From Apostichopus japonicus (taxonomy: Eukaryota; Echinodermata; Holothuroidea; Aspidochirotida; Stichopodidae), in the NCBI RefSeq assembly GCF_037975245.1, contig NC_092564.1, forward strand, positions 3,621,984 through 3,685,983: DNA of 64,000 nucleotides, given 5' to 3'. Both the position numbers and the translations under genes were made by a program. This document shows positions 1 through 59,520 of this stretch, piece by piece (the first letter of the stretch is position 1; every line of letters begins with the position of its first letter). Under the pieces are notes generated by a model, which worked only from the letters and a program-made list of their open reading frames with translations, made no database searches and was not told the DNA's origin.

Positions 1-971
1 CATTCCCGCGAATGCTACGTTCTTGTGAGTTGCATTTTGTCTTCATCCAATTAAGGAATCCACTGGGAATAAGGTTTAGAAACCCCACTTTATATCTTTC
101 AAATTCAAATAGCGATCATAACATATATAATAAAGCCGAGTTGAATGGAACAAATTACATCTTTCTACTCATGAAATATTTGCACTATTGCACGAATGGA
201 AACCATTCATTATTTGTTTTATACAACATTTTATATTAAGATGGGTAAAATGCACTCATGCAACAGATTGTTTTGAACAGACAGGTTTCTCTGCTCTCCT
301 ACAGTTGAAAAAAAGTGCTACCAAAAATGTATAACCCATGGTTCTATTTCATAGAGTGGAATAGAGCGGATTTTGCATGCAATCAACGAGCAATTGACCA
401 ATGAAATGACCAGAATACAATTAGGTGTTGTATAATATAGATTAAGCCACAAACAAAAACATATACTATGACTTTTCACGAAGAAGATCATCCAGTAAAT
501 ACTCCTCGCTCGAATAGATGAAAATGCAAAATCAATCGAAAAGAAATTGAAAAACAAACGAAAACATTACCGGGCAAGTAAATTACGCTAGGACATTTGC
601 AAAGGGTAAACTTGTCTTATATAAATCCAAGGCAAACCAGAGACCGCAAAACTATTAACTTCAAACAAAATAAGAAATAAATAAATAAACCGTCGTTACA
701 CGGTAACGCCTAAACCGCGCGTTAATTGATATATTTCTTAACATGTATTCTTCTTTCCAAAGCACTCTGGGGTATAGGATAATGCATTTTTGATGAGAAC
801 AGACTCCTTTTAATTACAAAGAAATTGATGATATAATTGCTAAAGTAGGTGATATGAAGTGTTCAAAAGATGGTGGGCTAAGATATTACGAATGTGGCAA
901 TCACGGAGAGTAAATATTAAAGTATATGTCATACTGTTGCTTACTAACATAGCCTATTATTCCTTCTATAG
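1..971. other. 5' flank or intron, no gene recognised
   Basis: No exon with a convincing acceptor, donor and coding pattern was found. The first LRR exon at 972 begins in phase 2, so coding sequence (signal peptide, LRR N-terminal cap) must lie upstream, either here unrecognised or outside the window. Confidence 0.5.
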
Positions 972-1043
972 ATATATTATCGAGACTGCAATAACAGAGA
1001 TTCCCGTTGAAGCGTTTTGGAATTTAACGCATTTGGAAGAGCT
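972..1043 (+). CDS. LRR receptor exon 1 in window (one LRR)
   Basis: 72 nt between acceptor ttctatag and donor gtaagta. It reads YIIETAITEIPVEAFWNLTH then LEEL, a standard LRR. An intact inverted copy lies at 8448-8519. Confidence 0.85.
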
Positions 1044-4000
1044 GTAAGTATATTGCATTGATTGCATTCAGTACGTTGCTACAGTACTTTAGATGTGTGA
1101 AATGTAAATTGTAACGTAAACAAGGCTCTCTTACATAAGAGCAAAAACAGTATCGTCCAATAGTCCAGCTGGAAGAGTGTGGCTTAGTATGTTATTACTT
1201 GAAATTTGTGCGTCTTAGTTTTAAGTATTTACCACTTAGACATACTTCCATGGACTGTCTTGCAAGCGTCGAGTTGGGGATAAGAAACAAAAACACATTA
1301 CATCCATTGACACGTATTTGAATAAAAACTGTCCTCGCCATTATAACGGCGTACTATTAAACCATTTTAATTTTTTTTGTAACAACGAAAATCATTTCAT
1401 TCTAATGCAAATATGGATGCCCTATCTACATGATGTCATTGTCTTTGAGAACACAACTCCCGACAACAATGGCATTGTATGATTGCAGTGTTTAAGATTT
1501 TACTCTGCAGTGTATACGATTTCACCCTGTATCATTATTAAATTATCCAAAATCTGCGGACATTGTCAACACAATCAGTCAAATTACGATACTATACATA
1601 CACAGGCTGATATACCAAATTTACGTTGATCTTAAAATTCAAATGAAAATATGGGTATACGATACGTAGTATTTATCTTTGCTTATGTGTAATTTATAAT
1701 TTTATTTTATTTCATTTATTTATTTGTTTTATCGAAACATTCACATGATATTATTAAGCACATATAAAGTAACAAAAATACAACGAGTTGTGAAGGTAGT
1801 GCTATAAAAACCCGTTATGGCATAACGAGTAGAGTTCTCCCTATACTTAACAATGAAAATATACATAAATATGTATCTAAAACCAATGAAAATATACATA
1901 AATATGTCTCTACACTAGAAAAAAAACCTGACCCTGTCTTTGACCCCACTCAAACCTCCCGACCCTTTTAACGACTTTCACACCTTTCCACACCCATAAC
2001 CCCAGATAAAACCCACCTATCCACCTACTCAAAACCTCCCGTCCCTATCCCATACATCTGTTGAAACCTTTGCCTGAAAAAGGTACATGACACTATAATA
2101 CAAACATCAATAGTTGTTTAGAAGGGTCTTAGTTTTTTTAAAGAGTGGAAGTGAGCTTATAGATTTCAGATCATCTGATATGGAGTTCCAAACAGTTATT
2201 GAACGGTTTCGTACATTTAATAGGCAATGTTTGTTTTGCAGGGATAACAATGTATGTTTTTGTTTTGTCTGGTTCTGTAGTTGTGCACCTGATTACTTTA
2301 TTCAAAGAAACTGTTGAATGAAAACGTTACGTGACAATGTGTTACTTTAAAAGCAAACGTTCCAAAATTCAAGTGGATTAGACCTGATAACTTAAGATTT
2401 ATTGAAGATAATAACGTACTGGTGTTCGCACGCTGAAGTGCGTTCCCAATATGTCGAATAGCTCGCTTTTGTAAGAATGTTAGTTTAGTTAGATCAGAAC
2501 GTTACATGGCTCTGTCTTGATATATCATCATGGAGAACTCCAGTTGAAGCTTCTGGAGGAATATTAAAATTTAGTGGTACAGAAAATATCTTTATTTATT
2601 TTTTACTTTATTCTTTTACTGTGCAGAAATTTGGAGAGGAATAAGATCACAAAAATTCCGGAACAGGCCTTTTTCAACCTAGCATTGTTGAAACTGTTGT
2701 AAGTATATACTAATTTAAAACGGGGATGAGCTGCACGAAATTTATTTTAACAAATGTACCGAAGTGATAAATAAATAAAATTAGTATACATTTTATAGAA
2801 TAATGTGAATAGTGTTATGTAAATAAAGTATTTATTCAGCATTACATTCATTGATTTAGTTTTCATGTAATAATATGAGAAAGTTTGTTCTTTAGAGTCT
2901 GAATGAATCTGAAGGTCATGTGACATATTTAGCAGCATTGATTCATTCTAAGATACCGTATAAGTTTTAAGTTCTAGATCAATCGTACGACACGGGAGAG
3001 GACTGCAGATTAGTGATGGCTTATAAGTTAACTATACTGTCAAATTATTACAGTGCTAAGTGTTACTTTCTATGTGTACTTAGTTCTCCGTGTTTATAGT
3101 TTAGATATATTAATGTACCGTATAAACTGCATAATAGTTCCCGAGGAAGTCAATATTAGTTTGCTATATAAACATCTACTTTCAGGGACCTAAAGCGGAA
3201 TATGATCAATGTGCTATCCCCAGAAGTCTTTTCAAGATTAACCAGTTTGACGAAATTGCAAGTTTTCTTTTTAAAACTATATAAGCGCTTTCATTCCTTT
3301 ATCTTTTAAAAGTTTGATAACTAGGAGAATGGCATGTCATGTTTGTGACCACGTCCGTTGCTGCTTTGTCTATTTGAATTATGACGCGATGGAGGGGAGG
3401 AGGTGGGGTGGGAGTGGAAGTAATAATATATCCATGGGGTTCAAATTCCAAAATATCATAATTATTTAAATATATATAACCGTTAACCTTAAATATACAT
3501 GTCAGAATTTGAATGAATAATGGGTAATTTGGTCGAAATGATCACGTAATATTTGTAACCTCAATCGTCTTTTAGCTTTATGCCGATAGTGATATATTGT
3601 TCGTTTTCTATACCAATGGTTGCTCCACAGTGTTTATCTATATCATTCTCATGCTTATGTTATCCGTGTTTAAACTCGTTGATTCGTTCGATTGGTTTTG
3701 TTGATAAAAATCATTAGCAAAATTGATTTCAATCATTACTTTTTCGGAACTTTGTTAGCTACGAAAACTTCATATATACATGGGGCATCAACATGCATCA
3801 GGTATACGGCCTTTAATACCTTATCTTATATCATTATGGTATAACGTTGCAAAATATCATGTAAATAACTGACTTCAAATTACCTTTTTTGATAAATTAT
3901 AAGTACTTTTATCAATATATTAATGAAGAGGACAACGTAATTGCAGCTGGCTGAATTCCGTAAATGATGGTATATATTTCATTTTGTCTTTTTTATTTCT

Positions 4001-7000
4001 TTTTTTACAGACGTCTTGAGGGCAACCAACTCAAGGCACTACATTGCAATCTCTTTAGTAAACTTACAAACTTAAAAAGTTTGTAAGTATTTATACAATA
4101 TTTTATATGATGTCTGGGCTGGACTTGGCTGGTATATATATATATATATATATATATTTATAAAGAAAACTCGTAATTGGCCATCGAACTATACTAGTGT
4201 GATAAATATGTACTTTACTGAACATCAGTTGATGCCCTTTACTTAAAGTGAATATCGTTTTAATTTAGTATCAAAAGTCTATGAAGACTGCGACACGTGA
4301 CTATTAGAACGAATACAGATATTCCAAATCTGCAATAAATGATGTTCTGAAACGTTCTTGCAATATTTTAACTTTGAGACCTATAACCTATTTATCAGTT
4401 TAGTGTACTACATATATAGTCAGAGAATAAAATGGCAACGCCAATCACAGAGGCCTCCTCATAGCTTTTTATAACTTCGCGGAATTTATTCAATTCGTTT
4501 TACAGTATGACAATTATAGAACCGTATGTTATTTGAAAATAACTGTCCATGTATAGCGGTTTCCTATCCAATCTAATATATCTATAATCCAATCAACGAC
4601 ATTGATTTATTTACGGAAAATTTTGCTAAAAAGTCCTTAACGCAAAATTTTGGCTATCGCACACAAAAAGCACACACGTTTCCTCCGCCTCGGCTACACA
4701 CTATCCAAATCTTATCCTCTATTTCTGACCCTCAACCCATATCGATGAGGGATGTCCTATCAAAGTATTATTTATGTTTCATCTTAACGGCAAATGCTGT
4801 TCTTTTCATTACTTTGCAGGAATAAATAACTTAATTTTAATGGACTGGATGCATGCAAATTTGTCACACATTCATTACATACCTTGGGGACGAGTATCAC
4901 TATTTCTTTGACTGTTCATTATTCTCAAGTGAAAGGATTAACTTCCCAAAGCATTATTACTATATGTACCATAATACTCTTAACATGGAAGAACTGTTTA
5001 ATACAAGTAATAACAATGTTTGTGAAAGCTTCACTCTTTTTAGTGCTAAAATATTAGGTCAGTGTTTAACTATTTTCTTGTGTGTTTTTATTTGATAAAT
5101 TATTGCGGCAACTTGTTGTCGTTTGTTATTGCTGTGTTCCTTTCCTTTCTCTTTTGTCTTCTTTAGTGTTCTTCTCTTTCTGTACTTTCTTTCCTATCTG
5201 GTATCACAATTGTCTTGTCGATGGCCTATTCAATATGTCGATGTTTATTTATGTTCATTTGTATTTACGTCTCTTTAAACTCTAATTCGAAGGGTAAAAA
5301 GAGATCAAGTCAACTATGTAGAGGCGCATACGGCTCCCGTTTTGATCAATTCTCGTATAGTTTGTTTCTTTTGGAATAATCACAAATGTCTTATATTCTA
5401 ATAACCAATGAAATCAGTTTGTGGAACACTCATGTTTTAAAAAACATTTGTTCACAGATATCTAAATGATAATATGATCGCTGCACTTCCTCACAACATA
5501 TTTTGGAATTTATATCAACTGGAAAGGCTGTGAGTAATATAAACAATTAATGTCTATATAAACGTGTGACGTATATTAGAAGTATAAGGATTAGATCAAC
5601 TTTCTTCTCTAGTTCTAGATTCAATCATTCGTTGCTATATTTCCAATATGGACATAAAGCAAACTGGACATGATATTGCTTTGTAGGTGGAGGCAAGAAT
5701 GACAGTTGTTCCGTCCTTCTCATTATTTTGTTATTTTTATTTTGGTTATTTTTATTAAAAAAACGTGCTATTTTAAATCTCTTGGGGGGCTCTCCACCCT
5801 GCGTTGTAAATATGTAACTCTTTCTTAGTCAACATACTGCTTGCTTCTTCTCCCCGCCCCAGTAAATACTTATATTAATATCAAGATAAAAGTCAGTATG
5901 TTATTTCTGGAAGTATTACAAAGATGGTCATGAATTCCCGCTATAATCACAGATATATCTTCAATAACTATTTGACGACGCTGCCAGGTGACTTGCTACG
6001 GAACTTGACAAGCTTGATATTGCTGTGAGTATGCTGTTTATATACTAATCGTTTACCCCATCACAACCGCTTATATAGAGTTTAACCAACGTGTTAATCC
6101 TCTAAATGGGGCGGGTGGGGGGGGGGGTGTATTGTTGGATGTTGCGACTTCTAACAAGAATTTCAATTGTAAAATTTATCAAACTTTTTATTATGAGTTA
6201 TTAAAGTTATTAAACTTAGTCATATAAGAGACAGAACTACAGCAGTGGCGTGCGCAAAGCGGGAGGGAGAGGAGGCAGGGCCACGGAGAAGAGGTCATGG
6301 GGAAGACCTAGAGCACTGTCATTCCTACTCCTTTTGTATGTGTGTATGTATGTATATATGTATGAATGTCTGTATTCAACTCCTTTTCAACCCCTTTTCA
6401 ACATAGGAAGACAAATCAAGGGAATTTGTTAGCAAAAACATTACTTTGTGTTTAGAGCCACTTACAGACCTAATTGTTCGACCAAATAAACATTATTAGC
6501 ATCAAAATACTAACGACTACTAGTTAATTTCACATACTTAATAACATGCGAACACCTGACGTCGATTAAAATGAATTTACTCTAATTGTTTAACTATTTG
6601 TGTATTTTTCTTTTTGCAGGGATGCAAGCTTCAACAAAGTCAATACATTACCTAGTAGTGTATTTTTCAATCTAGTTTGGCTGGATAATCTGTAAGTAAT
6701 AGGTTGAGGAATATCAATGTTAATATAAATCATATTCTAGAATATTGCAACATCAGGCATCAGTGATTTAATTTTCGATTATACATTACTGACAAACCGC
6801 CAAACTGACAAACCAGCAGATTCACGTCATATAGTCGCTTTTGAAGACAATTGTTAAGAAGCAGATTATCAGACATGGTATGGTTCAGCTGTAATCTAAT
6901 CCTACGTATGATGGCTATGTCTAACTTTCAGAGATTTGTCTGGTAACCAGCTCGAGATACTTCCGGAGAATATCTTTGCGGACTTAATACGGTTGAGCTA

Positions 7001-10000
7001 TCTGTAAGTATATGACTTTCTATCAGGATCCTGTTGGAATGCTGACATGAAAACGTTAAACGTTCATATGCTTTGTTTATGATACCCTTCGCAATCTGTT
7101 TAATGATAATAGGATTCTTTTGCAGGGATTTGTCCACCAACCAAATCACTATCCTCCCAGAGAAGCTACTGTGGAACTTATCTTCTCTGACACAGATGTA
7201 AGTAGAAGTTATATAAATGGGTCACACAATATTAACGTTGTTAACATATATATCTATCCTGCGTTTGATTGCATATCAATATACAATCAAGTTTGCATTT
7301 TGAATTCCCACGTTTTGGTATGATTAGTGTAGTAGTGGAAGAGGTGAAAGGAAGTGAATGAAAAACACGAGGCCACCTTCTCTGCCAAACACACACACAA
7401 ATACACATACACAATTTGGTATAACTACTTCTCAAGCACTATGTAATGTAATTAATATGTACCGACAAAGGTGATATAAACCAGCATTAAAGATAGTGTA
7501 CTTGACATCAAACTCCATTGTCCTTCTTACAGATGTGGGTTCGAAGTATGTTACCGAAGGTTCTATTAATCGGTCATATTATGTCATAAAATTAAAATAA
7601 AATTGAAATATGATATCATCGAAAAGTGATTGATGGAAATACATTCGATTGAACGAAGTATTTATTTTAATCGAGCAGAAGAGCCTATATTTCCTCCTTG
7701 ACCTCAGCAAAGGAATTTTTCAAAGGAAAATAGTAAAGATGGAGACTAATTTCTTGTTTACAGAGCACTTTATCACAACAACATCGAGATTATCCCTGAA
7801 AACCTGTTCTGCAACATAACTCAGCTGGACCAAGTGTAAGTTACCACATTCATAATAATTTCCAAACTTCTTTCTAGTTCTAACTCAGTGAATAGTCTAA
7901 TCCGAGACGCGGATCCAGGTATTCTGTGGGTATGTGCAGTGCCCCTCTCCCGGAAGATTAGCAAAAGATTAAGAACAGGCAGACTAGCAATGTATGTGAG
8001 CAGAGCAAGTGCAAAAAGAAGAAAAGCAAATCATTCTCAAATTGGATGAATTTACTGAAAAATAGATATACATTCAATGCATTAGAATGTAATGATTCTC
8101 GTTGTTACAAAAAAAAATTACAAATGGTTTAATAGTATGCCGTTATAATGGCGATGACAGTTTTTATTCAAATACGTGTCAATGGATGTAATGTGTTTGT
8201 GTTTCTTATCCCCAACTCGACGCTTGTAAGACAGTCCATGGAAGTATGTCTAAGTGGTAAATACTTATAACTAAGACGCACAAATTTCAAGTAATAGCAT
8301 ACTAAGCCACACTCTTCCAGCTGGACAAGTGGATACGATACTGTTTCTGCTCTTATGTAAGAGAGCCTTGTTTACGTTACAATTTACATTTCACACATCT
8401 AAAGTACTGTAGCAACGTACTGAATGCAATCAGTGCAATATACTTACAGCTCTTCCAAATGCGTTAAATTCCAAAACGCTTCAACGGGAATCTCTGTTAT
8501 TGCAGTCTTGATAATATATCTAAGGAATAATAGGCTATGTTAGTAAGCAACAGTTTGACATATACTTTACTGAAAGGCTGCCCGAGCATTTAAAATACCA
8601 TCCTCCCGGGAGTACTTAGCCATAAACAAATAATATACAGCTCGCCTTCCCGGTGGCTGGACTGTTCCCCGGAAGTAAACTTTACTTCCGGAGTTTGACT
8701 AACAAGGATGATGATGATAATGATGGGATCCCGAGACCGCACTTCTTCCGATATAAAATCCTGGATCCACCGCTGCTAATCAGATCCTAAGCTGCGATGA
8801 AGTTATAGTGTGAACAGTGTGGTATTATTATGATGAATTCGGTAAGCGATTTGGCATGTACATCAGCCCATTTTGCTTAATTAATAAGGATAACATTTAT
8901 AAATCATGTACCAACAAATATGATATACTAGACATTAATTAATAGGCTTTATAATGTAAAGGATGTACTAGACTAACGAATAAACGTTTAGTAGGCAACG
9001 ATTGTATTGTAAAATGGCGGAGGGAGTTTGAGCAACTGTGACTATTAGACCTCGGCGGTCATACAAGAACTAGCTTTGATAAAAGGTTTGAAAAAGCCCA
9101 AACATTGGCTGCTTTTCTTCCAACTATATTTCATGAAAATTATGTTTGTTATTTCATGGCCCCAATTGCAAGCATGGAATATTGTAGCGGACTGGTTATT
9201 AAAGTTTGTTGCCTATTGCTGTTACCATGGTAACGGTGTTTGGACGTAATGGTAGAACTAAATGTATTTAGTAGTACCCCCTAACGAGTTTCGGGGAGTC
9301 ACCATTCCAATGGTACTTTGACTAACTTACTTCGAAGAAATGTGCCCTGACATGAATACGTGTGTCTAGCTGACCCTTATAATAAGCTTCTTCAAAGGTC
9401 AAATGCCTAAGGTAATGTTAAGGAAAACGTTACTTTTTATATAACTCTATAAAGTGGACACTTTAAATTGACTTGCTATCTGTACATATAGCTAAGCAAG
9501 TCACTTTTAAGAGTAATAAGGAAAGTAAATGTCATCTAAGAACCAAACGACGGAAGGAACACCCATATTTAATAGCCTTCGGTTTTTGTTTCATTCGTCT
9601 TCACCTAAATGGCATAAAAGCAGCTAAGAATTCGTAAATATCTTACACGGTTGGTGAAAACGAATGCTAAGTAGCCTAATGTCTTATTTAAAGTTAATCA
9701 CTTCACGGAGAAAATGGAGAATAAAGAAAGTAAAAACGCCTCACCTGCAGTATAAGGAAGGTTATAAATATAAAGGCAACCAAGAATATCAGTTCACTAA
9801 AAAGAAGGACAAGAAATTGCGAACGCCCAGAACGGCAGATAAACACGTCCTTGCTACTACCAGCTGTACTGTACATGTGTCACGCACATATATTCCATGA
9901 GTGGCTCTCAGATTGCGTCAGGTGCCAATAATATTCCGACCGATAAGAGAGTGTTTCTCTATAATTGACCAAGAAAGAGTTGAGTTTCCCCTCTCCACAC

Positions 10001-13000
10001 CTCAACATGTAGGCTAATACGTATTTTATCGAATGTTTATTTTGTTTTTTTCTTGTGAATTTGTATTCTTTCTTGGTTTCAGTGTCTTCGATGAAAACGA
10101 GATTAAAGCAGTTCCTCGAGTATTGTTTCTTGGAATTACAGTTGGATCCCTGTAAGTAGAATTCATACCGTATTGAAGTCAGTTTGCTCCAAAAGTCCTT
10201 TTTGTATTCTTCTTTAACTGTTAAATCGCTACGGTGGTGTCGAAGTGGATTTCATCCTCTATAGAAACATGTCCGGTCAAGCAACGTTTACTAACGAAAC
10301 TATGTCCCTCCCTCATACTATTTAAAAACAAATATTAATTTATCATAAATTCAATTAATGCATATATGAAATTATACAGGACGGTTTGTCATGAATATTA
10401 AATATTCCAAGGGGGAGGGAGGGATTTCATGAGAAGGGGATTTTACTAACGTGAGAAATGAAGTTTGGTATTTTGTTTTCTAACCGATATATTTTGCTGT
10501 TATAAATATTGTCCGTCCAGACGCTATCTACATATTGACAACAATTACTGTTTACTGTTACATCGGCCTTAGATTCTAGTATTCCGGGACACCTTTCATG
10601 TGAAAATTGTAATATCACAAACTTTAATATATACTAACAAATATAATATACATATGATAAAAATCATTGTGTTCCTGTAATAACAAGAATATTATTGCTA
10701 CGAAAATTTCTCTCCACATTAATCCTAAATTTGTGATTACTCGGGATCGTGTAAAGTTGATCCATGCACCACCAAAACAAATGTATAATAACTGTTCTAC
10801 TTCTCTGTCTATGCCATGTACACATTTTATACTGTTTATAGTGTCAGGCAGAGGTTTTTCTATTTGGGGATTGTCTACTTGTAATATTCTCTGATAATTT
10901 TGTTCAAATTTAACGATATGTTTGACTTAGTAAAGTGAACCTTAACCAGCCTTTTAGATCAGGCTCAAAGCAGCTTCCGTGGTGTTGTGATGAGCCTGGG
11001 GCAAAGCGAAAGTATTTGTCCCCATTTCAAGAGTCAGAGAATTTCAGTTGAAATAACCTTCGTATTGATTTGACTTTTCATGACATCAGCTACCATCAAT
11101 TAAATTGGCATTTGACGGGGTGAGGACAAAACATCTGGCTGACATCCGATTTGGAAAGGTGACCTCAGGGAAGGACCCCTCCACTTTGAGCAACTTTTGT
11201 TTCGGTTACGGGGCTTGTAAACGCAAACCTGTGTTATCTCTTCAATCATTTTTAGCTATACATTGTCAGTGTATACGACTTTAAGTGCGTCTTTGACGTC
11301 ATCTCGTCGTATATGGCACATTGCGCCCCCCCCCCCCTCGCCACACAGGGGTTCAATACTGCAATGTTCTCACTTTCGCAAAAAGCACCTGAACTATCGG
11401 CCTAACGATTTATCTTTAAACTTGGAACAGGCGTCCATACTAAATCTTAAAAAGCCATCCATAAGCCGTCCATATAAAACCATGGAAGGTTGGGTGATAT
11501 ACCAGTGCTACAAAAGGCTTCCGTTTTATTTGATGAATACTGTAATCTAATTGTTGTCCTTTTGTCGTACTATTTCTTTCTTTCCAGGGATTTTTCTGGA
11601 AATAAAATAAGCAGTTTACCTCAAGACATCTTTGCAAACACTACAGTAACGGAAGCATTGTAAGGGTACTTTGAATTAACTATGTACATTTAGCTTCTTG
11701 TTGTCAACCCAATTTACCGAATATCTCTTGTGCACACTCTGTCAACGAATATGGTAAAATTGTGCCAAATCATATCTGTATTGATAGAAATAGACATTAT
11801 ATAGTAAGCATAACTCATGTAGGTTAACTGCTCACGGGATTATGAGTAATGAATTGTTAATACTACATACGAGTATATGGTATTAATCGCACGTAGAAGA
11901 CGTATATATCACTACGGTAATTTGACAGAGAAAAACGAGGTTCACAACACATTCCTTATGTCACAGATGACCCCCAATCACACTCGGACTTGTCCGTTAT
12001 AGATCAAAATTCTTTACGCGATTGCAGAAGCTTTAATCTGCTTATGGGTTCTGCAAATCCATATTTACCTTGGTGTATTAAGGATGAATTACCATCTTTT
12101 TCTTGGTGTAAAATGTTCTCACGCGATATTTTTCGAAAACAAATCATGATCTAGAACAACTATTCATTTTAAACTTTATCGGTCACTTTAGTTATCGCAA
12201 TAACTTCTCAACACTTGATCCTAAGAATTGATTTTACATGAGACATTTGATAAAGGAAAGCTTCATGCTTGTTGCAAGGAAACATTACGAATTTTTACTG
12301 ATATGCTTTTAAGGAAAAGTACCACATCGTCATCCTAGTGTCAGTGCTAACAACCATACGCTAAACCTTCTTTGTCTTGCAAATTTTCATTTTAGTGAGG
12401 CGGTTACCCACATATTATGCTGTAAATGTATGACATTCTTTAAAACACAAATTGCAAATCCTATGTTTTAATACGATACTAAATATAAGAAAGTAAGCTG
12501 ATGTACTCGAAAACATTATTTTAATTGTATCTTTTTGTTTTCATACTTTAGGGACTTTGCAGACAATCAGCTCACAGAGGTGCCAGCTGCAATCATTAAA
12601 CCAAATAGAAACAGGCTGACAATCACTATGCTCTTTCTGCAATCAAATCGTTTGACGGCAATCAACAGTGGCTCTTTTGACAAACTCATCAATTTAAAAG
12701 TCGTGTATGTTTATCTGTTCCCCTTAATTATTGTGCATTTATAGCTGCTCTTTGACTACAAATACGTATCGTTGTGTGCGTACGTCATGTATGTAGTATT
12801 CCTTTCCGATCTTATAACGTCTTTGCACTAGATACTCGACTTCGACTGAGAGCGGAAGTCATAATGAATCGTTTTCTTGCTGTACTTTAGAAACCGTGAA
12901 AATGGATTTTGTCCCTGTACAACAGAAAAGACCTTTTTCATTGCAAACATATTGGGGTACAGCATTCTTCCATTAACATCCATAGATCGTACTTTCCCAG

Positions 13001-16000
13001 CATTAACTCGGAATAAATGTCTAAATTTGTGTGTACAAAAACAGTCACATTGGCCGTCTTCCTCCTTAAACTACGGAACATAAACTACGGAACGGAACAT
13101 AAGCATAAACTACGGAACATAAATCAATTAAATCGAATAATATGACGAGTCGTATTATAATATGAGGACGTATGCATGGTTTTATCGTTTAATGTTTAAG
13201 CATGGTGCTATGTAATATCTTCGGTTCTCTCTTTCTAGCTTTTTGTAGGTAGTGTTGTGGTTAGATCTTACTCAAGATCGATTCCATTTGCGATATGTCA
13301 TAAGGAGTCTAACGATTAGGAAAGAACGGCATTTTCGAGACCACCAAACATTACCTCTATACGTTAAATGGAAAGTAACGATAGCTTGGGGCTTGTGAGG
13401 CTTGTTGCTTTCAAGCTGGTTACTCTCAACCCATTGTTATTATTTGTGGACTCGTCATATATACAAACTCATAGCAAGGAACACAAACGTTCGTGTTTGT
13501 GGACTTTTGGCTATGCAATATGATGATATTAACTCTTCATAAAATCATTGAAAGATTTGGAAATGACACCTTGCGTCATAATTACCGCTGTATTGGCTGT
13601 GACACAGTTATCTGCTCAAGAACATGAATAAACAGGATAAAACATTTGACCCTTGGCAAAGAGGAAAATACATGATCACATGGTCTAATACCTATCCTAT
13701 AACAACATGGTAGATTGATCGTCGCAAAATCTTGAACAAATATTCCTCCTTTTGTTGTTCATATTGTGCATATCTCTCACAATCGAAGCACATTTTTCAA
13801 TATTTAAATTGGTCTACCCCACATGTCCAGTAAACCTTCACGTGAGTCCGATATGGCATGATATGTTTTGTTTTCAGATTTTTGTCAAACAACTATATTC
13901 AAACCATGGATGAAGGGGTTTTTAATGGGCCAAACCTACAATGGATGTAAGCTCTATTTTCTTTTCTAGTATTTGATTGTATACGTTTTAATGTTTAATG
14001 TGAATTGTTGATTTCTGATTGAACATGGCGAATAACTTTTGGTATCAAAACTGTGAAAAATATTTAGGTGCCTATCTTCAATGATTGCAAGGTAATTACA
14101 AATGATAATTAGCAATATAGTTGTCACACATCTCCTTGCTGTATAGAACAGACGCAATATGGGGTGTCAAACCATCATTCATCATTCATGGTCATTAAAA
14201 TTGTTTCTCGAAATTGCTGACACACATATTTTTGAACATTTTATCTAGAAATTCAGACTATTTCTCAAACTTTCAACTTTCTATGTGGTTTTCGCAATCT
14301 CTTCATTTCCCTGCAATATTTCACAATAGCAAGACCAAAAAGTCAATTTAATTGTAACTTCAATGACATTAACTTTTGACTTTTCGCCACAGATTTTTGT
14401 TTTCAAACCGATTGACAGAAGTACTGCATAATCCGTTCACTGGAAGCATGATAAAAGAGGTGTAAGTATAATACATTTTGACTGTCGTGAAGACCAATCT
14501 ATCTATAAGCGTAACTTCATCTGGTTTCCTAATATTAAGCGAAGTTTCTTCACACTTCACAATTTTCAGTTTGGAAATTTTTCTAAATATATTCATTCTT
14601 TACATGGGTTCAAATATTTTCCTCCAACAACTTTATAGAGTCATCAACTCTAGAAGATATGGTCTTCAGTGTATGTTGCACTGCCTTCGTTCTATTAACA
14701 AAGGCCATTTATTCAAAGAACATTCTCTGCCTATAGGTAGCTTTGAGAGTTTGATCTTTCTTTTAAAATAAATTTACTTTTTATAAAAGTTTTACAAGAA
14801 ACAAGTTATTTAGATAATAGCAAAGACGGATTCATTTGTAAGAATGATACGATTAAAAATGTCAGAGTAAGGAAAGTAGGGTCGACAACTTGGTTGAATG
14901 GATTGAGAGGTAGAAACAAAATATCTAGAGTTTCGTGGAACAATGACCATACTGACTGACATGGAATATATTTCAAAAGCTCCGACTAGAATTAGGGCTT
15001 TGTTATAGCAGGAATACGTCGTCGAGATCTCGCATGAGATAAACAATTGCCAGTGATGCAGATTGGGGGATCAACTAACACATGCCTACATAGAATATGT
15101 AGCTTAAACATGTTGGGAGTGCAGAAAAGGCATGTCAGTTTACACAAAGGAACGTTATATGTAAGATACACTCCCTTTGGCATGTGACACTGCAAGCTTG
15201 ATTAAAACGACATAAATTATATGGTTCCCTTCGCTTTCCACTGTAAGTGTCACGTTATCGTTAGGACAAAGTTGACATTACTGCACGATAAAAGTGGACA
15301 ATGTATGATGCCGGGGCAACAGTAAACAGGTGAAATTTAGGGATATTACATGAGGATCCGTATGAGACAATAATAACCGGACGTCTGATAAGGGTTCAGA
15401 TTGTCCACAGACGAAACCTTCCTATAATGCAACGCTCAGTACCGTATCACATTAACAAAACAAAGCAAAAGGCTCTAAAGACAATAAGAAGGCAAGTAAA
15501 TCTCGGTTGCTTACGTTTCAGGCATATCTATGGTAACAACATCAAGAACTTATCGAAAGAATTCGTCAAAGGAGTTAGAAACGAATCGACGATGTAAGTA
15601 CAATTTACATTAAGAGACTATGTAAATTATAAAAACGATCTGCCCCTTTCTACATAATGCCACCACATATGATAACAATGACTCAACTACGAGTAAGATT
15701 CTCATATTCGTGTTTTGACTTAACAATTGAGAAACAAGTTGTCAACAGATATTGCCAGAAAAATGAAGAACTCGAATAATATTAGAGAAGCAGACGACTC
15801 CTCCCCTCCCCTCCCTCTCCCGCACCATCCCCAACCTACTCCAAAAAAGCCTACATGAGAGCATGTGGAATCCAGATAGGATATAAGACACATGGTTCAG
15901 TCCGAAAATACCGTTTATTAAAGATGCATAATTAACGGTAACAATTAATGAGTGCCGACAGACAACCATGAAACGATTTGCACATCGCGCTTCCGTCTGT

Positions 16001-19000
16001 GAACTTCAATATAGGGGTTTAGACATATTAAGTTTCTAATCAATTTAAATAATAGTTTCGTAGCCGCCGTCGGTGTTGGAACTATGCAATGGAAAATAAG
16101 AAAACTCTGATGATTCATGCATGGTGGATCTTGTACTAAATAATTAGAAAGCCTTAGCAAAGTTTACTCGTGTAAAATATGCAGGCATTTCCACATCGGT
16201 GAGTCCATACGTATTTTGCATTGATATAGAGTAACGACCGAAGCTGGTAACTAAGCAAGAGAGCCCCCGCGCACAAATATATATATATATATATACATGT
16301 ATCATATAAGAAAATTTATATAATTAAATATAATATTAAAATACAATGATATGATATATAATATTAATAAATAATAATCATAATAATATATTACATACTC
16401 GCTTCAAGGACCAACCATCAAGACCAGTATAAATGGTTTTGCTTCTTTTTACAGCTTCGTTAACTGTGCTTCGTTATCTCAATTACCACGATCCACTAAT
16501 AATGAAACAATGTAAGTTTCCAATCACAAAAAAAAAAAACAGAATGTGATATATTCAACCTGAGGGCAAAGTCTTTATATAGTGATTAGCTGCTAATACG
16601 CACACAATCAACATGAAAAGTCGGCGTCCGGAATATAAACTTATGGTATATAAGATTACGGCATTATTGATTTCTCATACTCCAAGAATAAAATAAAACA
16701 ATTATGTATTCTCTTCCTAACCATGAACATGTCTTTTGGTGAGTTATTTTTCTACAACTATAGTTAATAACAAGACCTAGCATATGTTTTCAATTTTGCG
16801 ACAAATATTTTCATAAAGGATTCTAATTACCGGTTTGTCTTGTAACCTATACCAATTTTAAATATTAGTCTGTGAAATATATGTTGATTGTGATGGTGAA
16901 ACGTAAACTCATGATTATATATGTGTAATTTTTTTAATGCAAATTAAATTGATAAACGCATTATGCTTGCAACAACAGCAAGTGTGTCGATCCACAATCG
17001 TTACCCAAGATACATCTCCTCGCGTGGGATATAATGGTTGCAGATTACTTTGACAGAAACGGGTTCGAATGCGAAGCTTTAACGGAAACATGTGTGCCCT
17101 GTCGACCCGGCACCTTTGCAGACCGAGTGACAGTTGGTTGTCAACCGTGTCCTCGTGGTAAATAACGAAGTGTTACTTTTATTTTGTTATTGGTTTGCAT
17201 TTGTTAGTTTGTTTTGTACTATGTACAATCGATGGCGATAGATAAATTCGGAACAGTCTAACATCCATGATGAAAGACTTTGTAATCGCTTCTCGACTAT
17301 AGTAGTAAAGAAGAAAGCTAGTTTTTTCTCAAAAACATTAAAGTTAAAAATAAATGTATATTTTAAATTAAACATGTAAACAACATGTGAAACATTAAAA
17401 ATACAAAGACAGCATGAAAATACGTTCCATTGTATTGTAAAGCTCTCTAAAGACTGACTTAAAATCGACCTGGACGGGCCCGTGTTGGTGATAACGTTTA
17501 GTAGAGATATTTTCCTCAACAAATTCAAATGTGTTTGGTTACTTGATCAATGATTCTTTGCGGTCACGGTGAGGTAACCTCAATTTTTGTTAAATGTTAT
17601 GGTTTAGAAATCTTGAGAAATGAGTAAGCATAAACCATTCCTCGTGGAGTTGCTAACGACCCTCTAGCAACTTCCAATATGTACATCTCGTAGAAAAGTA
17701 TATGTTGATGCGACTGACGATGTATGTCGCTGAACCACATATAACACAGGGTCTTCGTTGTAGACGCAATTACGATCCATGTCTGGTTTCTTCCTTAACT
17801 TCAGGTGGATTTTTCCAAGATGGGATCGGTCAGCTTGCCACCGTTCGTGGGGGTGTCGCATGCAAGCAATGTAACAAGGGTACCTATGTAAAGTCTGGAG
17901 GTGGTTCTTCAACTAAAGACTGTGAAGTCTGTCCAGGAGGGACCAATCAATCGACATTTGCCGGATATCGAGCCTGCTCTTGTAAGGAGAACTATGCACG
18001 TACAGACCGTTACGGTCCCTGCACACTCTGCCGAGAAGATGGTCTTAATTGTTCCGAGGATTATAGGACACTTCTTCCTGGCTATATGTGGAATTGGGAC
18101 TTTCCGGATGCAGACCTGAGTAATTACAAGCAGTTCATAGCAAATCTGAAGAAAGAGAACCGTTTGTTGGATTCTTACACCAGCTACAATGAAACGTTTC
18201 CTGTGATATTTGAATGTCCCCGACAGGAGAGTTGCATTAATGATGAAGAGAAGATTGAAGGAACATGTGCAGAAGGGTACCAAGGATGGCTTTGCTACAA
18301 CTGTCAACCTAGTTACTACTCAGTTCTCAATGTATGCGTACACTGTCCAAACATAGCAATACTCATACTAGAAACCAGTGCGTTCTTCATTGCGTGTGTG
18401 CTGATAATGGTGTTCATTTTATGGCAGATGAAGAAAGAAGATGGTTCTCATGAGACAAGAACAATCTTAGACGTAATTATTTCTAGAATCAAGCTGTTGC
18501 TCGGTTTTTATCAGGTCGTTGGAGAAATATTCACTTCATTTCATGACATTAACTGGACTGGACCTTTGGTCATCATTGGCAGTTTTATTTCATCTTTGGA
18601 GATGAATATCTTGAAGTTATTCGTGAGACCTCGATGCTATGATGATCGCTTGGTAATCAATCCAAAGATTGAATTTATCCTGGCAGTTTCCATCCCGGTG
18701 GCAGTCATTCTCTTTCCCTTCATTTCTTTTGTTATAAAGAAAGTCTACGTTATCTGCAGACGTAGATTTGTTACCACCAACCTCGAAGGGTCGTTTGAAG
18801 GATTGAAGTCCAAACTGTTTACCTGCGTCGTCGTGCTTCTCTTCATCATTTACCCAAGCGTATGTTCATCAATTTTCCAACTTTATCCACATGCATGTAA
18901 GACATTTTTCTTGGATGACAACAGTCGTTACTACATAAAACGGCTCCGATCAGACCTTGATGTCAGTTGCGATAACCTCGGTACATACAATGCTTTAGCC

Positions 19001-20824
19001 TACGTCTTCACTGTGGTATATGTTATTGGGTTTCCAGCCTCCCTTCTCTATGTCCTATGGATCAAATGGCGTCAGCGAAATGTTCATGATGAAAAGGGTC
19101 TGAGGCAACAAGGATTAGATGAAGTTGTTAGACATGATCAAGTTCATGAAGATAACGACGATGATGATGAAGATTCTCCTCTTCTCATCAACGACTCCAG
19201 GCCTACTAAGGCCGCAATGACTACGCCATGGCTTGAATTCCTTTGTGAAAATTACAAAGATGATTTCTGGTTTTGGGAAATCATTGAGCTAACCAGGAAG
19301 GTTTCTCAAACTCTCTTGATCACATTATATGGATGGGAGGACAGACTGACAGTACTCCTGACGACGTGCATATCTGTGATATTTTTGGTTCTGCATGCTC
19401 GTTACAGGCCTATGAAAAACCCATATGAACAACACCTGCAAGTAAGAATTTACTTTTATGTTCATACAAATACCATCGGTACTTTCAATAATTCAGTCTA
19501 CTCTCATAGTTAAAATAATTCTACTGAAGGGAGAATTCGATTCATACTCACCCCGAAGAAGAACATTCAAGAAACACAATATGATCGGATTTACATGGCG
19601 CAATTATATAACCGCATAAAACTTAGATAACCATTTAACTTCTCGCTGTAAATATAATGACTATTGGTACGACCTTGGTCCGATTAACAAGCTATAATGA
19701 TATCATTTTATCGTCCCATGAACAAGCTATAATGATATGGGTTTTATATACCTCGAACAAGCTACAATGATATGGTTTTATCGTCCCTTATGATATGGGT
19801 TTTATATCTCTCGAACAAGCTACAATGATATGGTTTTATCGTCCCACGAACAAGCTACAAATGATATGGTTTTATCGTTCCATGAACAAGCTATAATGAT
19901 ACGGTTTAATCGTCCCTTCTAGCAAGCTATACTGATATAGTTTTATCGTCCCATTAACAAGCTATAATGATATAGTTTGATCGTCCTATTAACAAGCTAT
20001 AATGATATGGTTTCATCGTCCCATGAACAAGCTTTATGGTTACAGTGATCTGGTTTTATCGTCCCATTAACAAGCTATTATGATATAGTTTTATCGTCCC
20101 ATGAACAAGCTATAATGATATTGTTTTATTATCCTATTAACAAGCTTTAATGATATGGTTTTATTGTCCCATTAGCAAGCTATAATGATATCAACATTTC
20201 AGCTCTTCCAATCAAAGTTGTTCAAAGGCACTTGTCTCATTGCTCCTAACAGATGCTCTCTTTGACAGTAATTTTTATCAACGTCCTTGTAGCTGCGAAT
20301 GGAATTCCTGATACTTACGAGGATCCAGTTTCAATCGTCCTAATTATTTTAAACGTGCTTGTGCTTATGATAATCTCAGGTAAGATTCCGGCGGGAAAAG
20401 TGGGTTTACAGCCCTGACAACCGCAAAGAAAAAAATCAAAGGTATTTTTTAACACGATCTTGCTTTAAGACCTAACCATGGAACTAATTAATAGTATAAT
20501 TCAAATTGCTATAGAATGTACCATTTTAAATTGATATTTGATATCTGGAGGATGGCCCAATAACCATTCATGGAAGCTTCAACAAAGCAAAGATCAGACC
20601 ATTCCTTTATAAAATCGTAGATATACTTCCCTGGTATATATAAGAAAAACCATTGATGTTTATCCCTGTATTACTTATGTTTCACAGGAGAGGTTTTGTG
20701 TACGGCTATCCTTCACGTAAAGCATGCTGGTGCCATGACATTTATTGCCCGTGTTCGAAAATCCTCTCCTGGTTTCTTGATTAAGAAAGAGACGTCAACA
20801 GGAAAGGATGATACACAGAGCTAA
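972..20824 (+). CDS. LRR receptor-like protein with Cys-rich GCC2/GCC3-like region and 8-9 transmembrane segments (21 exons, 5' partial)
   Basis: Twenty-one exons join without a stop into 1119 residues plus an upstream partial codon. Exons 1-17 (972-16511) encode an LRR ectodomain with the pattern LxxNxIxxLPxxxFxNLxxL. Most repeats are one 72-nt (or 69-nt) exon with phase-2 introns, as in LRR-containing glycoprotein-hormone/relaxin-type receptors. Exons 18-19 encode CxxCxxGT(F/Y)...CxxCPxG modules like those of the ephrin-receptor-like/GCC2-GCC3 family. They are followed by about 8-9 hydrophobic segments, from about 18345 in exon 19 through exon 20. A cytosolic acidic run (about 19155-19185) leads into an EDSPLL di-leucine motif. 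The membrane part is not a classical rhodopsin-like 7TM domain. From memory it resembles the large uncharacterised family of Cys-rich, TRP/Flc-like multipass proteins of protists and marine invertebrates. Role: a cell-surface receptor or channel-like protein is inferred; the ligand is unknown. Confidence 0.85.
2627..2698 (+). CDS. LRR receptor exon 2 (one LRR)
   Basis: 72 nt after tgtgcag and before gtaagt. It contains the core NKITKIPEQAFFNL. An intact inverted copy lies at 58637-58708. Confidence 0.88.
3186..3257 (+). CDS. LRR receptor exon 3 (one LRR) with GC donor
   Basis: 72 nt after ctttcag, with core NMINVLSPEVFSRLTSL. The length and phase fit only if the donor is gcaagt (a GC-AG intron) at 3258; no GT occurs at that point. 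Confidence 0.8.
4011..4082 (+). CDS. LRR receptor exon 4 (one LRR)
   Basis: 72 nt after ttttttacag and before gtaagt. The core is GNQLKALHCNLFSKLTNL. The intron upstream (about 3690-3960) has an inverted copy near 41.9-42.1 kb. Confidence 0.87.
5458..5529 (+). CDS. LRR receptor exon 5 (one LRR)
   Basis: 72 nt after gttcacag and before gtgagt. The core is DNMIAALPHNIFWNLYQL. Confidence 0.87.
5953..6024 (+). CDS. LRR receptor exon 6 (one LRR)
   Basis: 72 nt after aatcacag and before gtgagt. The core is NNYLTTLPGDLLRNLTSL. Confidence 0.87.
6620..6691 (+). CDS. LRR receptor exon 7 (one LRR)
   Basis: 72 nt after ctttttgcag and before gtaagt. The core is FNKVNTLPSSVFFNLVWL. Confidence 0.87.
6932..7003 (+). 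CDS. LRR receptor exon 8 (one LRR)
   Basis: 72 nt after taactttcag and before gtaagt. The core is SGNQLEILPENIFADLIRL. The intron to exon 9 is only 122 nt, suggesting a recent tandem exon duplication. Confidence 0.88.
7126..7197 (+). CDS. LRR receptor exon 9 (one LRR)
   Basis: 72 nt after ttcttttgcag and before gtaagt. The core is TNQITILPEKLLWNLSSL. It starts with the same DLS as exon 8. Confidence 0.88.
7764..7835 (+). CDS. LRR receptor exon 10 (one LRR)
   Basis: 72 nt after cttgtttacag and before gtaagt. The core is HNNIEIIPENLFCNITQL, with a potential N-glycosylation site NIT. Confidence 0.87.
7836..10082. other. Long intron 10-11 of the LRR receptor
   Basis: This 2.2-kb intron holds an inverted copy of the exon-1 region (about 8080-8570). 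The rest shows nothing recognisable; a short ORF near 9664-9900 is Lys-rich and not exon-like. Confidence 0.6.
8080..8570 (-). repeat. Inverted duplicate of the exon-1 region (about 920-1410), including an intact LRR exon
   Basis: Read on the minus strand, this stretch follows 920-1410 almost base for base, through exon 1 and the downstream intron. The 72-nt exon copy (8448-8519) keeps AG and gtaagta borders and an open frame with few substitutions. It lies antisense inside intron 10-11 of the same gene, about 7 kb from its source. Confidence 0.9.
10083..10151 (+). CDS. LRR receptor exon 11 (one LRR, 69 nt)
   Basis: After tggtttcag and before gtaagt. The core is DENEIKAVPRVLFLGITV. It is one codon shorter than the standard 72-nt module, and the phase is kept. 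Confidence 0.83.
11588..11659 (+). CDS. LRR receptor exon 12 (one LRR)
   Basis: 72 nt after ctttccag and before gtaagg. The core is SGNKISSLPQDIFANTTV. A degenerate inverted copy lies near 43.2 kb. Confidence 0.86.
12552..12704 (+). CDS. LRR receptor exon 13 (double LRR, 153 nt)
   Basis: After atactttag and before gtatgt. It encodes two repeats in one exon (DNQLTEVPAAIIKPN, then SNRLTAINSGSFDKLINL), as if one intron had been lost. The inverted copy at 42295-42446 carries a 1-nt deletion that brings a stop into frame. Confidence 0.88.
13878..13946 (+). CDS. LRR receptor exon 14 (one LRR, 69 nt)
   Basis: After gttttcag and before gtaagc. The core is SNNYIQTMDEGVFNGPNL. Confidence 0.85.
14393..14461 (+). 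CDS. LRR receptor exon 15 (one LRR, 69 nt)
   Basis: After tcgccacag and before gtaagt. The core is SNRLTEVLHNPFTGSMI. Confidence 0.85.
15522..15593 (+). CDS. LRR receptor exon 16 (one LRR)
   Basis: 72 nt after acgtttcag and before gtaagt. The core is GNNIKNLSKEFVKGVRN. The hydrophobic positions are weaker than in earlier repeats. Confidence 0.82.
16455..16511 (+). CDS. LRR receptor exon 17 (short, end of the LRR domain)
   Basis: 57 nt after tttttacag and before gtaagt, reading FVNCASLSQLPRSTNNETM. It is a shortened repeat with one Cys and fits the frame on both sides. Confidence 0.75.
16979..17157 (+). CDS. LRR receptor exon 18 (LRR C-terminal cap and first Cys-rich module)
   Basis: Acceptor aacaacag, donor gtaaat; phase changes from 2 to 1 here. 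It carries KCVDPQSLP, CEALTETCVPCRPGTF and CQPCPRG. The latter two match the CxxCxxGTF...CxxCPxG pattern of ephrin-receptor-like/GCC2-GCC3 modules. Confidence 0.82.
17805..19441 (+). CDS. LRR receptor exon 19 (Cys-rich region, membrane helices 1-7)
   Basis: Acceptor taacttcag and donor gtaaga, entered in phase 1. The exon starts GGFFQDGIGQ and continues a Cys-rich ectodomain (CKQCNKGTYV, CEVCPGGTNQ, CTLCREDG). Hydrophobic segments follow from about 18345. Notable stretches are RIKLLLGFYQVVGEIF (helix 2 region), LEMNILKLF and LTRKVSQTLLITLYGW. Between the fifth and sixth segments lies an acidic D/E run followed by EDSPLL. The open frame extends upstream to 17702, but that part is intron. Confidence 0.9.
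19685..20192. repeat. Minisatellite, about 35-37 bp unit, in intron 19-20
   Basis: About fourteen imperfect tandem copies of aacaagctataatgatatgg followed by ttttatcgtccc and a 3-6-nt variable tail. The array ends about 60 nt before the acceptor of exon 20. Confidence 0.93.
20253..20379 (+). CDS. LRR receptor exon 20 (last two hydrophobic helices)
   Basis: 127 nt after ctcctaacag and before gtaaga, phase 0 to 1. It reads MLSLTVIFINVLVAANGI, then PVSIVLIILNVLVLMIIS. An earlier AG at 20200 would give a stop, so this acceptor is preferred. A nonsense-mutated copy lies at 62418-62528. Confidence 0.82.
20688..20824 (+). CDS. LRR receptor exon 21 (C-terminal tail, stop)
   Basis: After gtttcacag. 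It reads GEVLCTAILHVKHAGAMTF, then a basic cytosolic tail ending GKDDTQS and TAA at 20822-20824. Confidence 0.85.
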
Positions 20825-36314: not shown

Positions 36315-36353
<39 letters not shown>

Positions 36354-57413: not shown

Positions 57414-58258
57414 AGAAGTGGAAAATCTTGAATATAATTTGCTTTTAAAAAAATATTGGAAAATTCAACGCCATTTAAAAAAAAATAAGCACCCTTTCAA
57501 TAACAGTTTCTCGAAGGGAGCGGGGATATCTAGCTCCTCAACAATATCCCCCACTGGAGGGTCACCAAAATGACGAAGGTGAAAATTGGGGTCGCTATTG
57601 CCAAAAAATCATTTTTTGGACATCTTACATTGTATTGACTTTGTCCAAAAACGGACGTTAGGTTTTAACTTGTCGATTTCAGACCGAACTTAAAAATATC
57701 CACACATATTTATTGGACATACGGGTACATCAAATGTGATAACATATCTATGCCTTTACAACAATTTCTCTGTTCTTAAACTGACAGTTTACAAACCAGT
57801 GTAACATATCATAAAAATGTATTCGTTCTTTCCCCACAAATTTATTATAACGGCATGGGTCTTTAATTTTGGTTATTCAAATGTAACCCTTTGATGTACG
57901 TTTCTGTCATTATTTCTGATTGGGCGATTTTGAAGGACTTCCTTCATCAGATTATATACAAGTATATTAATAATGGAAAACTGATATGGGAAATTATCGC
58001 CAATAATCACTGGCGATGGCCATTTGTAACTCTTGGGGCCATACCTGACACATTGTACTTACTTTGATGGGTTTACCTATGAAAGCTGTTCTAGTTTAGC
58101 TTTTAGGTGAATTTAAAATTGCCCTCCCAGCCACACCCACCACAGCAGGTTTGCCAGTCGTCTGGTTTCATATACAGGAATGCACTGTGAACTTGTGATG
58201 TACAAGGCAATTGGTTACCTTCCCAGCTAACCAAACCCTCTGGGCTCCCGGTCTACTA
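57410..58258. repeat. Composite dispersed repeat shared with 49.9-50.3 kb and 43.9-44.2 kb
   Basis: 57700-57995 follows 49995-50310 and 57997-58258 follows 43893-44155, joined directly. Elsewhere in the window the two halves are about 6 kb apart and in the opposite order. Confidence 0.8.
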
Positions 58259-58364
58259 GTTCACATTGAAAGTGACATCACTTAGCATGTCAATATGTTG
58301 ACAATAGTTAACGTATACGTCATCACTTCTCTGCAGTCCTCTTCCGTGTCGTACGTTTGATCTA

Positions 58365-58890: not shown

Positions 58891-58983
58891 AACGCAGCCG
58901 CCGGGCACTTATGGTAAGGAATTTCCCCAAAAATGTTGTCCTTAGGACCTATAAAAGATTTGCCTTAAAAGCGAAAAAAATTA

Positions 58984-59055: not shown

Positions 59056-59093
59056 GAGCCACGTGTTGGATCTATGGCAAAAGGTATCTCAAG

Positions 59094-59153
<60 letters not shown>

Positions 59154-59392: not shown

Positions 59393-59430
59393 GAGCCACG
59401 TGGTGGATCTATGGCAAACGGTATCTCAAG

Positions 59431-59520
<90 letters not shown>

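What the first reader, a model, noticed from the sequence alone, without database searches (positions are those of the whole stretch)
972..20824. LRR ectodomain fused to a Cys-rich, non-rhodopsin multipass membrane region
Seen: 21 exons splice into one 1119-residue open frame, with single-repeat 72-nt exons, then CxxCxxGT modules, then 8-9 hydrophobic segments unlike the rhodopsin-type 7TM core that normally follows LRRs in LGR receptors. Known: GCC2/GCC3-like modules next to a TRP/Flc-like multipass domain occur in uncharacterised protist and marine invertebrate proteins. Inferred: a receptor- or channel-like surface protein, perhaps a lineage-specific sensor. This is the main candidate for an undescribed system here.
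Basis: partly seen in the sequence, partly recalled or inferred. Interest (0 to 1): 0.8.

Follow-up and report, generated by a model that had tools for sequence, protein, structure and literature searches.

The report
Large family of leucine-rich-repeat membrane receptors
This is a real gene for a cell-surface protein that joins a protein-binding repeat domain to a many-times membrane-crossing domain of no recognised type, and the same animal genome carries a large family of some eighty or more such genes or gene pieces, which makes it look like a sensing or defence receptor repertoire.

Summary
The 21 exons splice to 1119 stop-free residues, but the model lacks its start: an LRRNT-like exon ends at window 1-24, and an ATG/signal-peptide-like exon lies 1.25 kb upstream of the window, giving 23 exons and 1194 residues. 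The protein has a signal-like start, Cys cap, 17 LRRs, a Cys-rich stalk ending in DUF7630 (Pfam, at or above cut-off), about nine membrane spans and a basic tail.

The own genome, searchable only late, holds 80 scored places encoding the stalk-plus-membrane exon, 76 of 80 without stops. Of 29 paralogs fetched, 28 have LRR-exon candidates upstream (124 in all; 0 on the reverse strand), so LRR and membrane parts belong together. Purifying selection (dN/dS 0.13-0.20 between diverged copies) and a mosaic signal suggest a living family that duplicates and exchanges sequence.

No rhodopsin 7TM hit. The TRP/Flc idea is not supported: below cut-off and in 2 of 7 members scanned. GCC2/GCC3-like modules stay sub-threshold. 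Ligand, mechanism and species are unknown; most likely a lineage-expanded recognition-receptor family.

The parts
1..24 (+). 3' end of the LRRNT-like exon (IPANATFL across the splice); rest of the exon is L008:9898-10000, upstream of the window
   Evidence: translation; searches give the rest of the exon with CX5CXCX10C; some PDB chains (LRRC15 from residue 30, LRRC4B from 33, a VLR from 38) align from its first residue, while the top-scoring LGR4/5 chains match internal repeats
972..1043 (+). LRR exon 1 (one 24-residue repeat)
   Evidence: AG..GTAAGT
2627..2698 (+). LRR exon 2
3186..3257 (+). LRR exon 3 (GC donor)
4011..4082 (+). LRR exon 4
5458..5529 (+). LRR exon 5
5953..6024 (+). LRR exon 6
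6620..6691 (+). LRR exon 7
6932..7003 (+). LRR exon 8
7126..7197 (+). LRR exon 9
7764..7835 (+). LRR exon 10
10083..10151 (+). LRR exon 11 (69 nt)
11588..11659 (+). LRR exon 12
12552..12704 (+). LRR exon 13 (two repeats)
   Evidence: differs from a fragment copy less than its flanks do, 5/153 vs 71/464 mismatch columns, Fisher p 5e-6
13878..13946 (+). LRR exon 14 (69 nt)
14393..14461 (+). LRR exon 15 (69 nt)
   Evidence: aligned exon-only to paralogs
15522..15593 (+). LRR exon 16
16455..16511 (+). exon 17, end of the LRR domain
16979..17157 (+). exon 18, start of the Cys-rich stalk; no in-frame ATG upstream before a stop
   Evidence: counterpart in 28 of 29 paralogs
17805..19441 (+). exon 19: rest of the Cys-rich stalk, DUF7630 and about seven membrane spans
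   Evidence: DUF7630; 13-row alignment, 57% mean column identity
20253..20379 (+). exon 20: last two membrane spans
   Evidence: counterpart in 26 of 29 paralogs, splice contexts printed for 10 of them
20688..20824 (+). exon 21: basic C-terminal tail and stop
   Evidence: counterpart found in 6 of 29 paralogs
8078..8569 (-). inverted copy of 918-1409 with LRR exon 1, inside intron 10
   Evidence: 95.6% identity
41140..43490 (-). rearranged fragment copies of intron and exon 4, 12 and 13 sequence, decayed
   Evidence: exon 4 cut after 24 nt, exon 12 without acceptor and with an in-frame stop (stop), exon 13 with a one-base gap
58255..58896 (-). fragment copy of the exon 2 region
   Evidence: 91% identity
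62404..63285 (+). remnant of an exon 20-21 pair with an in-frame stop in the exon 20 copy

Best explanation
A functional animal gene (species not established) for a plasma-membrane receptor of a large, locally duplicating family. Shown by sequence: signal-peptide-like start, LRRNT-like cap, 17 LRRs, Cys-rich stalk with DUF7630, membrane domain, basic tail; LRR exons next to the same stalk-and-membrane exon in the paralogs examined. Inferred: the LRR face binds a protein or microbial/environmental ligand outside the cell, the disulphide-rich stalk couples it to a 9-span domain (N-terminus out, C-terminus in), and binding changes the conformation of that domain to pass a signal (ion flux, or recruitment of an intracellular partner to the acidic loop and basic tail). 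Inferred: the repertoire is widened by tandem duplication and by sequence exchange between neighbours, as in expanded chemosensory or innate recognition receptor families.
For: Open 23-exon model with signal-like start. 80 places with the stalk-plus-membrane exon at 35% identity or more, the window's own included (115 candidates, 80 scored, so a lower bound), 76 of 80 without stops in the match; one more place (C13) appears only in the DUF7630 search. 28 of 29 fetched paralogs with LRR-exon candidates upstream: 124 candidates against 0 on the reverse strand and 2 in 290 Markov sequences. Exon 18 counterpart in 28 of 29, exon 20 in 26 of 29. Purifying selection: membrane part dN/dS 0.13-0.20 in the six diverged pairs of the 16 computed. 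Clustering on C16 (50), C4 (9), C2 (8), C14 (7) (my count); the sampled C4 and C16 copies form clades supported 100/99. Mosaic exon 19: maximum chi-square 58, 0 of 1000 permutations as high. Topology: two invariant Cys (P0001 C364, C388) in the loop between the fifth and sixth segments, a basic loop after segment 4 and a basic tail fit 9 spans if segments 2 and 3 make only one crossing.
Against: No expression, ligand or localisation data. No significant Pfam, NCBIfam or PDB assignment for the membrane domain, so 'receptor that signals' rests on architecture. Diversifying selection on the binding face is not shown: in six C16 pairs with a defined value, LRR exons lie at 0.39-0.64 and the membrane part at 0.29-0.59, LRR higher in 4 of 6; in five diverged pairs with a value, LRR exons lie at 0.08-0.26, higher than the membrane part in 2 of 5; the LRR exons were matched by best identity of at least 50%, which favours low values. 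The mosaic test treats sites as exchangeable; uneven constraint along the exon could add to it. Both structure predictions were single-sequence and useless (pLDDT 38.8 and 42.7). The ectodomains of the places that were not fetched were not looked at.
Confidence: 0.6

Rival explanations
1. LRR-gated ion channel: the membrane domain is a distant TRP/Flc (PF06011) relative and the LRR ectodomain gates calcium entry.
For: PF06011 hit on residues 965-1083 in profile order (E 0.0012; 0.0005 on the C-terminal 219 residues), better than the best of four decoys (0.0046, another family); the hit includes most of the strongly conserved block around P0001 W475-E491.
Against: Below cut-off (18.2-19.4 of 28.5 bits); found in the window gene and nearest paralog only, none of 5 other spliced paralogs (six of the ten spliced were scanned); none of 13 exon-19 rows, which lack exon 20; no PDB hit for the membrane part with the exon-19 profile.
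Confidence: 0.2
2. Non-channel adhesion or scaffold protein: the LRR part binds a partner and the multipass part is only an anchor.
For: LRR plus GCC2_GCC3 ectodomains exist on single-span proteins such as ApLRRTK of Aplysia (PMC4200351, passages seen).
Against: The membrane domain has many invariant polar, charged and aromatic residues and is under purifying selection, more than an anchor seems to need.
Confidence: 0.2
3. Gene-model artefact: LRR gene and multipass gene are neighbours wrongly joined.
For: No transcript data were available.
Against: Exon 18 has no in-frame ATG before an upstream stop; LRR-exon candidates upstream of the membrane exon in 28 of 29 paralogs on seven contigs; compatible phases throughout.
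Confidence: 0.03
4. A lone or dying pseudogene.
For: Decayed partial copies lie nearby; 4 of 80 family places carry stops.
Against: Window gene fully open with a start and dN/dS 0.155-0.197 against its nearest paralog.
Confidence: 0.04

Closest known systems
LGR receptors (LGR4/5, glycoprotein-hormone receptors)
   Same: LRR ectodomain on a multipass membrane domain; the best PDB matches of the LRR part include LGR4 and LGR5; single-repeat LRR exons (recalled for LGR genes)
   Different: No 7tm_1 hit; Cys-rich stalk with DUF7630; about 9 spans; LRR matches are generic (ALS scores highest)
ApLRRTK of Aplysia (PMC4200351, passages seen)
   Same: Signal peptide, LRRs and a GCC2_GCC3 region
   Different: One membrane span and an FGFR-type kinase; here multipass and no kinase; GCC2_GCC3 only sub-threshold here
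Fungal Flc/TRP proteins (PF06011; PMC9600462, passages seen)
   Same: PF06011 gives a weak local match to the last third of the membrane region
   Different: Flc ectodomain is ML-like, not LRR; the match is sub-threshold and not family-wide
DUF7630 proteins (PF24633)
   Same: Domain at or above cut-off in the window gene and matched at E up to 1 in 13 of 13 rows
   Different: A domain label without known function; the name occurs in no paper of the library searched
Lamprey VLR
   Same: LRR architecture and a cap; VLR chains are among PDB matches
   Different: Here a germline gene that is already complete; of the nearby LRR-exon pieces those of exons 4, 12 and 13 are cut or decayed, and cassette use was not tested

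Membership tests
LGR / rhodopsin-type LRR GPCR | 7tm_1 domain after the LRRs | tested here: not met
   No 7tm hit
LGR / rhodopsin-type LRR GPCR | Extracellular LRR domain with N-terminal Cys cap | tested here: met
   LRR_8 4.4e-57; Cys cap by pattern only; the Pfam LRRNT model gave no hit
TRP/Flc (PF06011) | Profile score above the curated cut-off | tested here: not met
   18.2-19.4 vs 28.5 bits; 2 of 7 family members scanned with exon 20 at any level
TRP/Flc (PF06011) | TRP-like fold of the membrane domain | tested here: inconclusive
   Models too poor, pLDDT 38.8 and 42.7; no fold search run
GCC2_GCC3 / Ephrin_rec_like (PF07699) | Profile score above the curated cut-off | tested here: not met
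   16.7 vs 23.1 bits; 7 of 13 rows at E up to 1, best 0.0025
DUF7630 (PF24633) | Profile score above the curated cut-off | tested here: met
   27.0-29.8 bits vs 27; 30 matches in the own genome over cut-off (150 of 166 candidates scored), 0 of 14 control genomes
Expanded receptor multigene family | Many clustered paralogs, mostly intact, with purifying selection | tested here: met
   intactness judged on the exon-19 frame only
Expanded receptor multigene family | Ligand recognition and signalling | not testable with these tools
   No expression or binding data

The most novel reading that the evidence does not exclude
An undescribed class of animal recognition receptors: some 80 or more LRR ectodomains wired straight to a new type of 9-span signalling domain, diversified by tandem duplication and gene conversion, and serving as this lineage's main environmental or immune sensing repertoire.
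Probability: 0.25. Interest if true: 0.85.

Novelty: new variant of a known kind. Interest (0 to 1): 0.6.

Why it matters
LRR ectodomains are the common recognition module of Toll-like receptors, LGRs and VLRs. A family of this size that joins them to a membrane domain outside the receptor and channel families tested here would add a receptor type to animal sensing or innate immunity, and it gives a clear target (a conserved multipass domain with an invariant aromatic-acidic block) for structure and function work.

Tried and rejected
Viral, GTDB genome and phage collections: no relative of the exon-19 protein (the first two reach close relatives only). A motif scan of viral contigs with a pattern recalled from memory gave 6 loci, none with a tblastn match to the protein better than E 0.04. 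NCBIfam: nothing for the exon-19 protein. PDB: for the membrane part one chance hit at E 0.6 by single sequence; the exon-19 family profile gave only two TNFRSF21 sequences at E 0.18-0.27 on the stalk. A VLR-like cassette reservoir was considered because LRR-exon pieces lie in inverted orientation in the window; I set it aside because the copy of exon 12 has lost its acceptor and has a stop, that of exon 13 has a one-base gap and that of exon 4 is cut, although the exon 1 and exon 2 copies look intact. Papers: of ten answered searches, bear on this architecture and their listings showed no description of LRR plus GCC2_GCC3/DUF7630 plus multipass proteins (one search was about gustatory-receptor-like proteins, about Flc); long lists were cut at 15-20 rows and the library holds open-licence papers only. 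Passages of PMC6019070 and PMC3251606 were seen and did not help. The first splice scripts failed on exon edges, put right.
Full report
CHECK OF THE OBSERVATION. The exons between 972 and 20824 splice to 1119 residues with a single final stop. Introns end in AG; 19 of 20 donors are GT (11 of them GTAAGT) and one is GC. The 17 introns after exons 1-17 are phase 2, so the LRR exons are symmetric; most are 72 nt and carry one 24-residue repeat, and exon 13 carries two. Chance control: 10 LRR-pattern exons of 72 nt on the + strand of the window against 3 in total over 100 second-order Markov sequences. The pattern was set after seeing the exons, and a first mis-indexed version found none anywhere. 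Pfam finds LRR_8 at 4.4e-57.

THE MISSING START. Window 1-24 ends in a donor and reads IPANATFL into exon 1. In a PDB search this stretch aligns from its first residue with LRRC15 (from residue 30), LRRC4B (33) and a VLR (38), where I recall their N-terminal caps to end; the top-scoring LGR4/5 chains match internal repeats instead. The 10 kb upstream, taken from the own genome (L008), holds the rest of that exon with a CX5CXCX10C pattern and, before it, an exon with ATG and a signal-peptide-like start. The full model has 23 exons and 1194 residues, from G000:C4:3620734. The Pfam LRRNT model gave no hit, so the cap is called by pattern, and no signal-peptide predictor was run.

DOMAINS. After the LRRs come exon 17, a Cys-rich stalk with four CxxCxxGx motifs and DUF7630 (27.0-29.8 bits, cut-off 27). 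PF07699 (Ephrin_rec_like, the Pfam name for GCC2_GCC3 as I recall) is sub-threshold. Nine segments reach a mean hydropathy of 1.4; a tenth weak one was added by eye. In the 13-row alignment two cysteines, C364 and C388 of P0001, are invariant in the loop between segments 5 and 6, and the loop after segment 4 is basic. With an outside N-terminus this fits nine crossings if segments 2 and 3 make one crossing between them and the tenth segment counts; this topology is inference.

A LARGE FAMILY. After many unanswered calls the own genome became searchable: 671.6 Mb in 35 contigs, window at C4:3621984-3685983. DUF7630 gives 30 matches over cut-off (150 of 166 candidates scored), in open frames of 443-618 residues, and none in 14 control genomes. 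The exon-19 protein gives 90 matches at 80 places, the window's own included (115 candidates, 80 scored, so a lower bound): 50 on C16, 9 on C4, 8 on C2, 7 on C14, 2 on C23, and one each on C8, C9, C12 and C18 by my count; 76 of 80 have no stop inside the match. A further place on C13 appears only. I fetched the 29 DUF7630 places other than the window's, not the remaining places. Of these 29, 28 show LRR-exon candidates upstream by a simple pattern (L011 none; 1 to 8 each in the others): 124 in all, against 0 on the reverse strand of the same stretches and 2 in 290 Markov sequences. Counterparts of exon 18 were found in 28 of 29 (not L015), exon 20 in 26 of 29 (not L009, L010, L021), exon 21 in 6 of 29. 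L022 and L025 have a truncated exon-19 frame. Identity of exon 19 to the window protein runs from 31% to 87%.

SELECTION AND EXCHANGE. For 16 pairs that I chose, the membrane part has dN/dS of 0.13-0.20 in the six diverged pairs and 0.10-0.59 in ten recent pairs; the Cys-rich part 0.12-0.17 and 0.18-0.87. LRR exons of six recent C16 pairs lie at 0.39-0.64 (a seventh has no synonymous change), higher than the membrane part in 4 of 6; in five diverged pairs with a value they lie at 0.08-0.26, higher in 2 of 5. None exceeds 1, so diversifying selection on the binding face is not shown. Window gene and seven paralogs compared align only over exons. Along exon 19 the window gene resembles L009 in patches of its first part and L012 in the last part (maximum chi-square 58, 0 of 1000 permutations as high; 39% L009-like sites on the left, 8% on the right). 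Its exon 16 is nearer to L009 (77%) than to L012 (33%), while exon 15 is nearer to L012 (74% against 57%). This suggests gene conversion or unequal exchange among neighbours, though uneven constraint could contribute. The tree of 30 exon-19 proteins supports the C4 and C16 groups at 100/99, with L015 and L021 on long branches of unsure place.

DECAYED PIECES. The window also holds an inverted copy of the exon 1 region (95.6%), a minus-strand copy of the exon 2 region (91%), rearranged pieces with exons 4, 12 and 13, and an exon 20-21 remnant with a stop. All but the exon 20-21 remnant share introns with the window gene, unlike the paralogs, so they derive from it or a close copy. Exon 13 differs from its fragment copy at 5 of 153 columns against 71 of 464 in flanking intron, Fisher p 5e-6 (gap columns were set aside unevenly there, so take it as approximate); exons 2 and 12 show no clear contrast, 3 of 72 against 38 of 577 and 9 of 72 against 70 of 543.

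WHAT IT IS NOT. No 7tm hit. TRP: sub-threshold, 2 of 7 family members scanned with exon 20, and only 4-9 times better in E-value than the best of four decoys. A wrong join of two genes is very unlikely: exon 18 has no in-frame ATG before an upstream stop and the arrangement recurs in paralogs.

HOW IT MOST LIKELY WORKS. Shown: signal-like start, LRRs, Cys-rich stalk, multipass domain, large and mostly open family. Inferred: extracellular ligand binding by the LRR face, transfer through the stalk, conformational signalling by the membrane domain. The size and clustering resemble chemosensory or innate immune receptor families (general knowledge). Ligand, partner and tissue are unknown. The species is not established; an echinoderm-like animal is my guess and no call tested it.

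RELATION TO KNOWN THINGS. ApLRRTK of Aplysia combines LRRs and a GCC2_GCC3 region with one span and a kinase (PMC4200351, passages seen). Fungal Flc proteins pair PF06011 with an ML-like domain (PMC9600462, passages seen). PMC6993872 (passages) mentions leucine-rich repeats on a Capsaspora TKL kinase discussed with Eph-like sequences. I found no paper that describes the present combination in the searches listed in Tried and rejected.

Noticed in passing
58984-60647, - strand: Six tandem tRNA-His (GTG) genes, starts 290-365 bp apart, all with the same Rfam score.
   Followed up: partly
30811-37180, + strand: A three-exon gene for a 462-residue multipass-like protein with no Pfam hit (the splice was one base off at exon 2 and the protein was then typed with that edge put right); it reminds me of gustatory-receptor-like proteins, recalled and not tested. 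The genome search for copies did not complete.
   Followed up: partly
34849-35271, - strand: Remnant of a hAT-type transposase (PF05699, E 4.5e-4, 20.4 bits, just below the cut-off of 21.4).
   Followed up: no
19678-20191, + strand: Tandem array with a unit of about 35 bp in intron 19, in front of exon 20.
   Followed up: no
918-1409 and 8078-8569: Inverted duplication of nearly 500 bp carrying LRR exon 1, 95.6% identical, the second copy antisense inside intron 10; it could form a long hairpin in the primary transcript.
   Followed up: partly
L028/L029, L030/L033, L031/L032/L034/L035 (C16): Paralogs with identical membrane-exon proteins at places tens to hundreds of kb apart: very recent duplication, conversion, or an assembly effect.
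   Followed up: no
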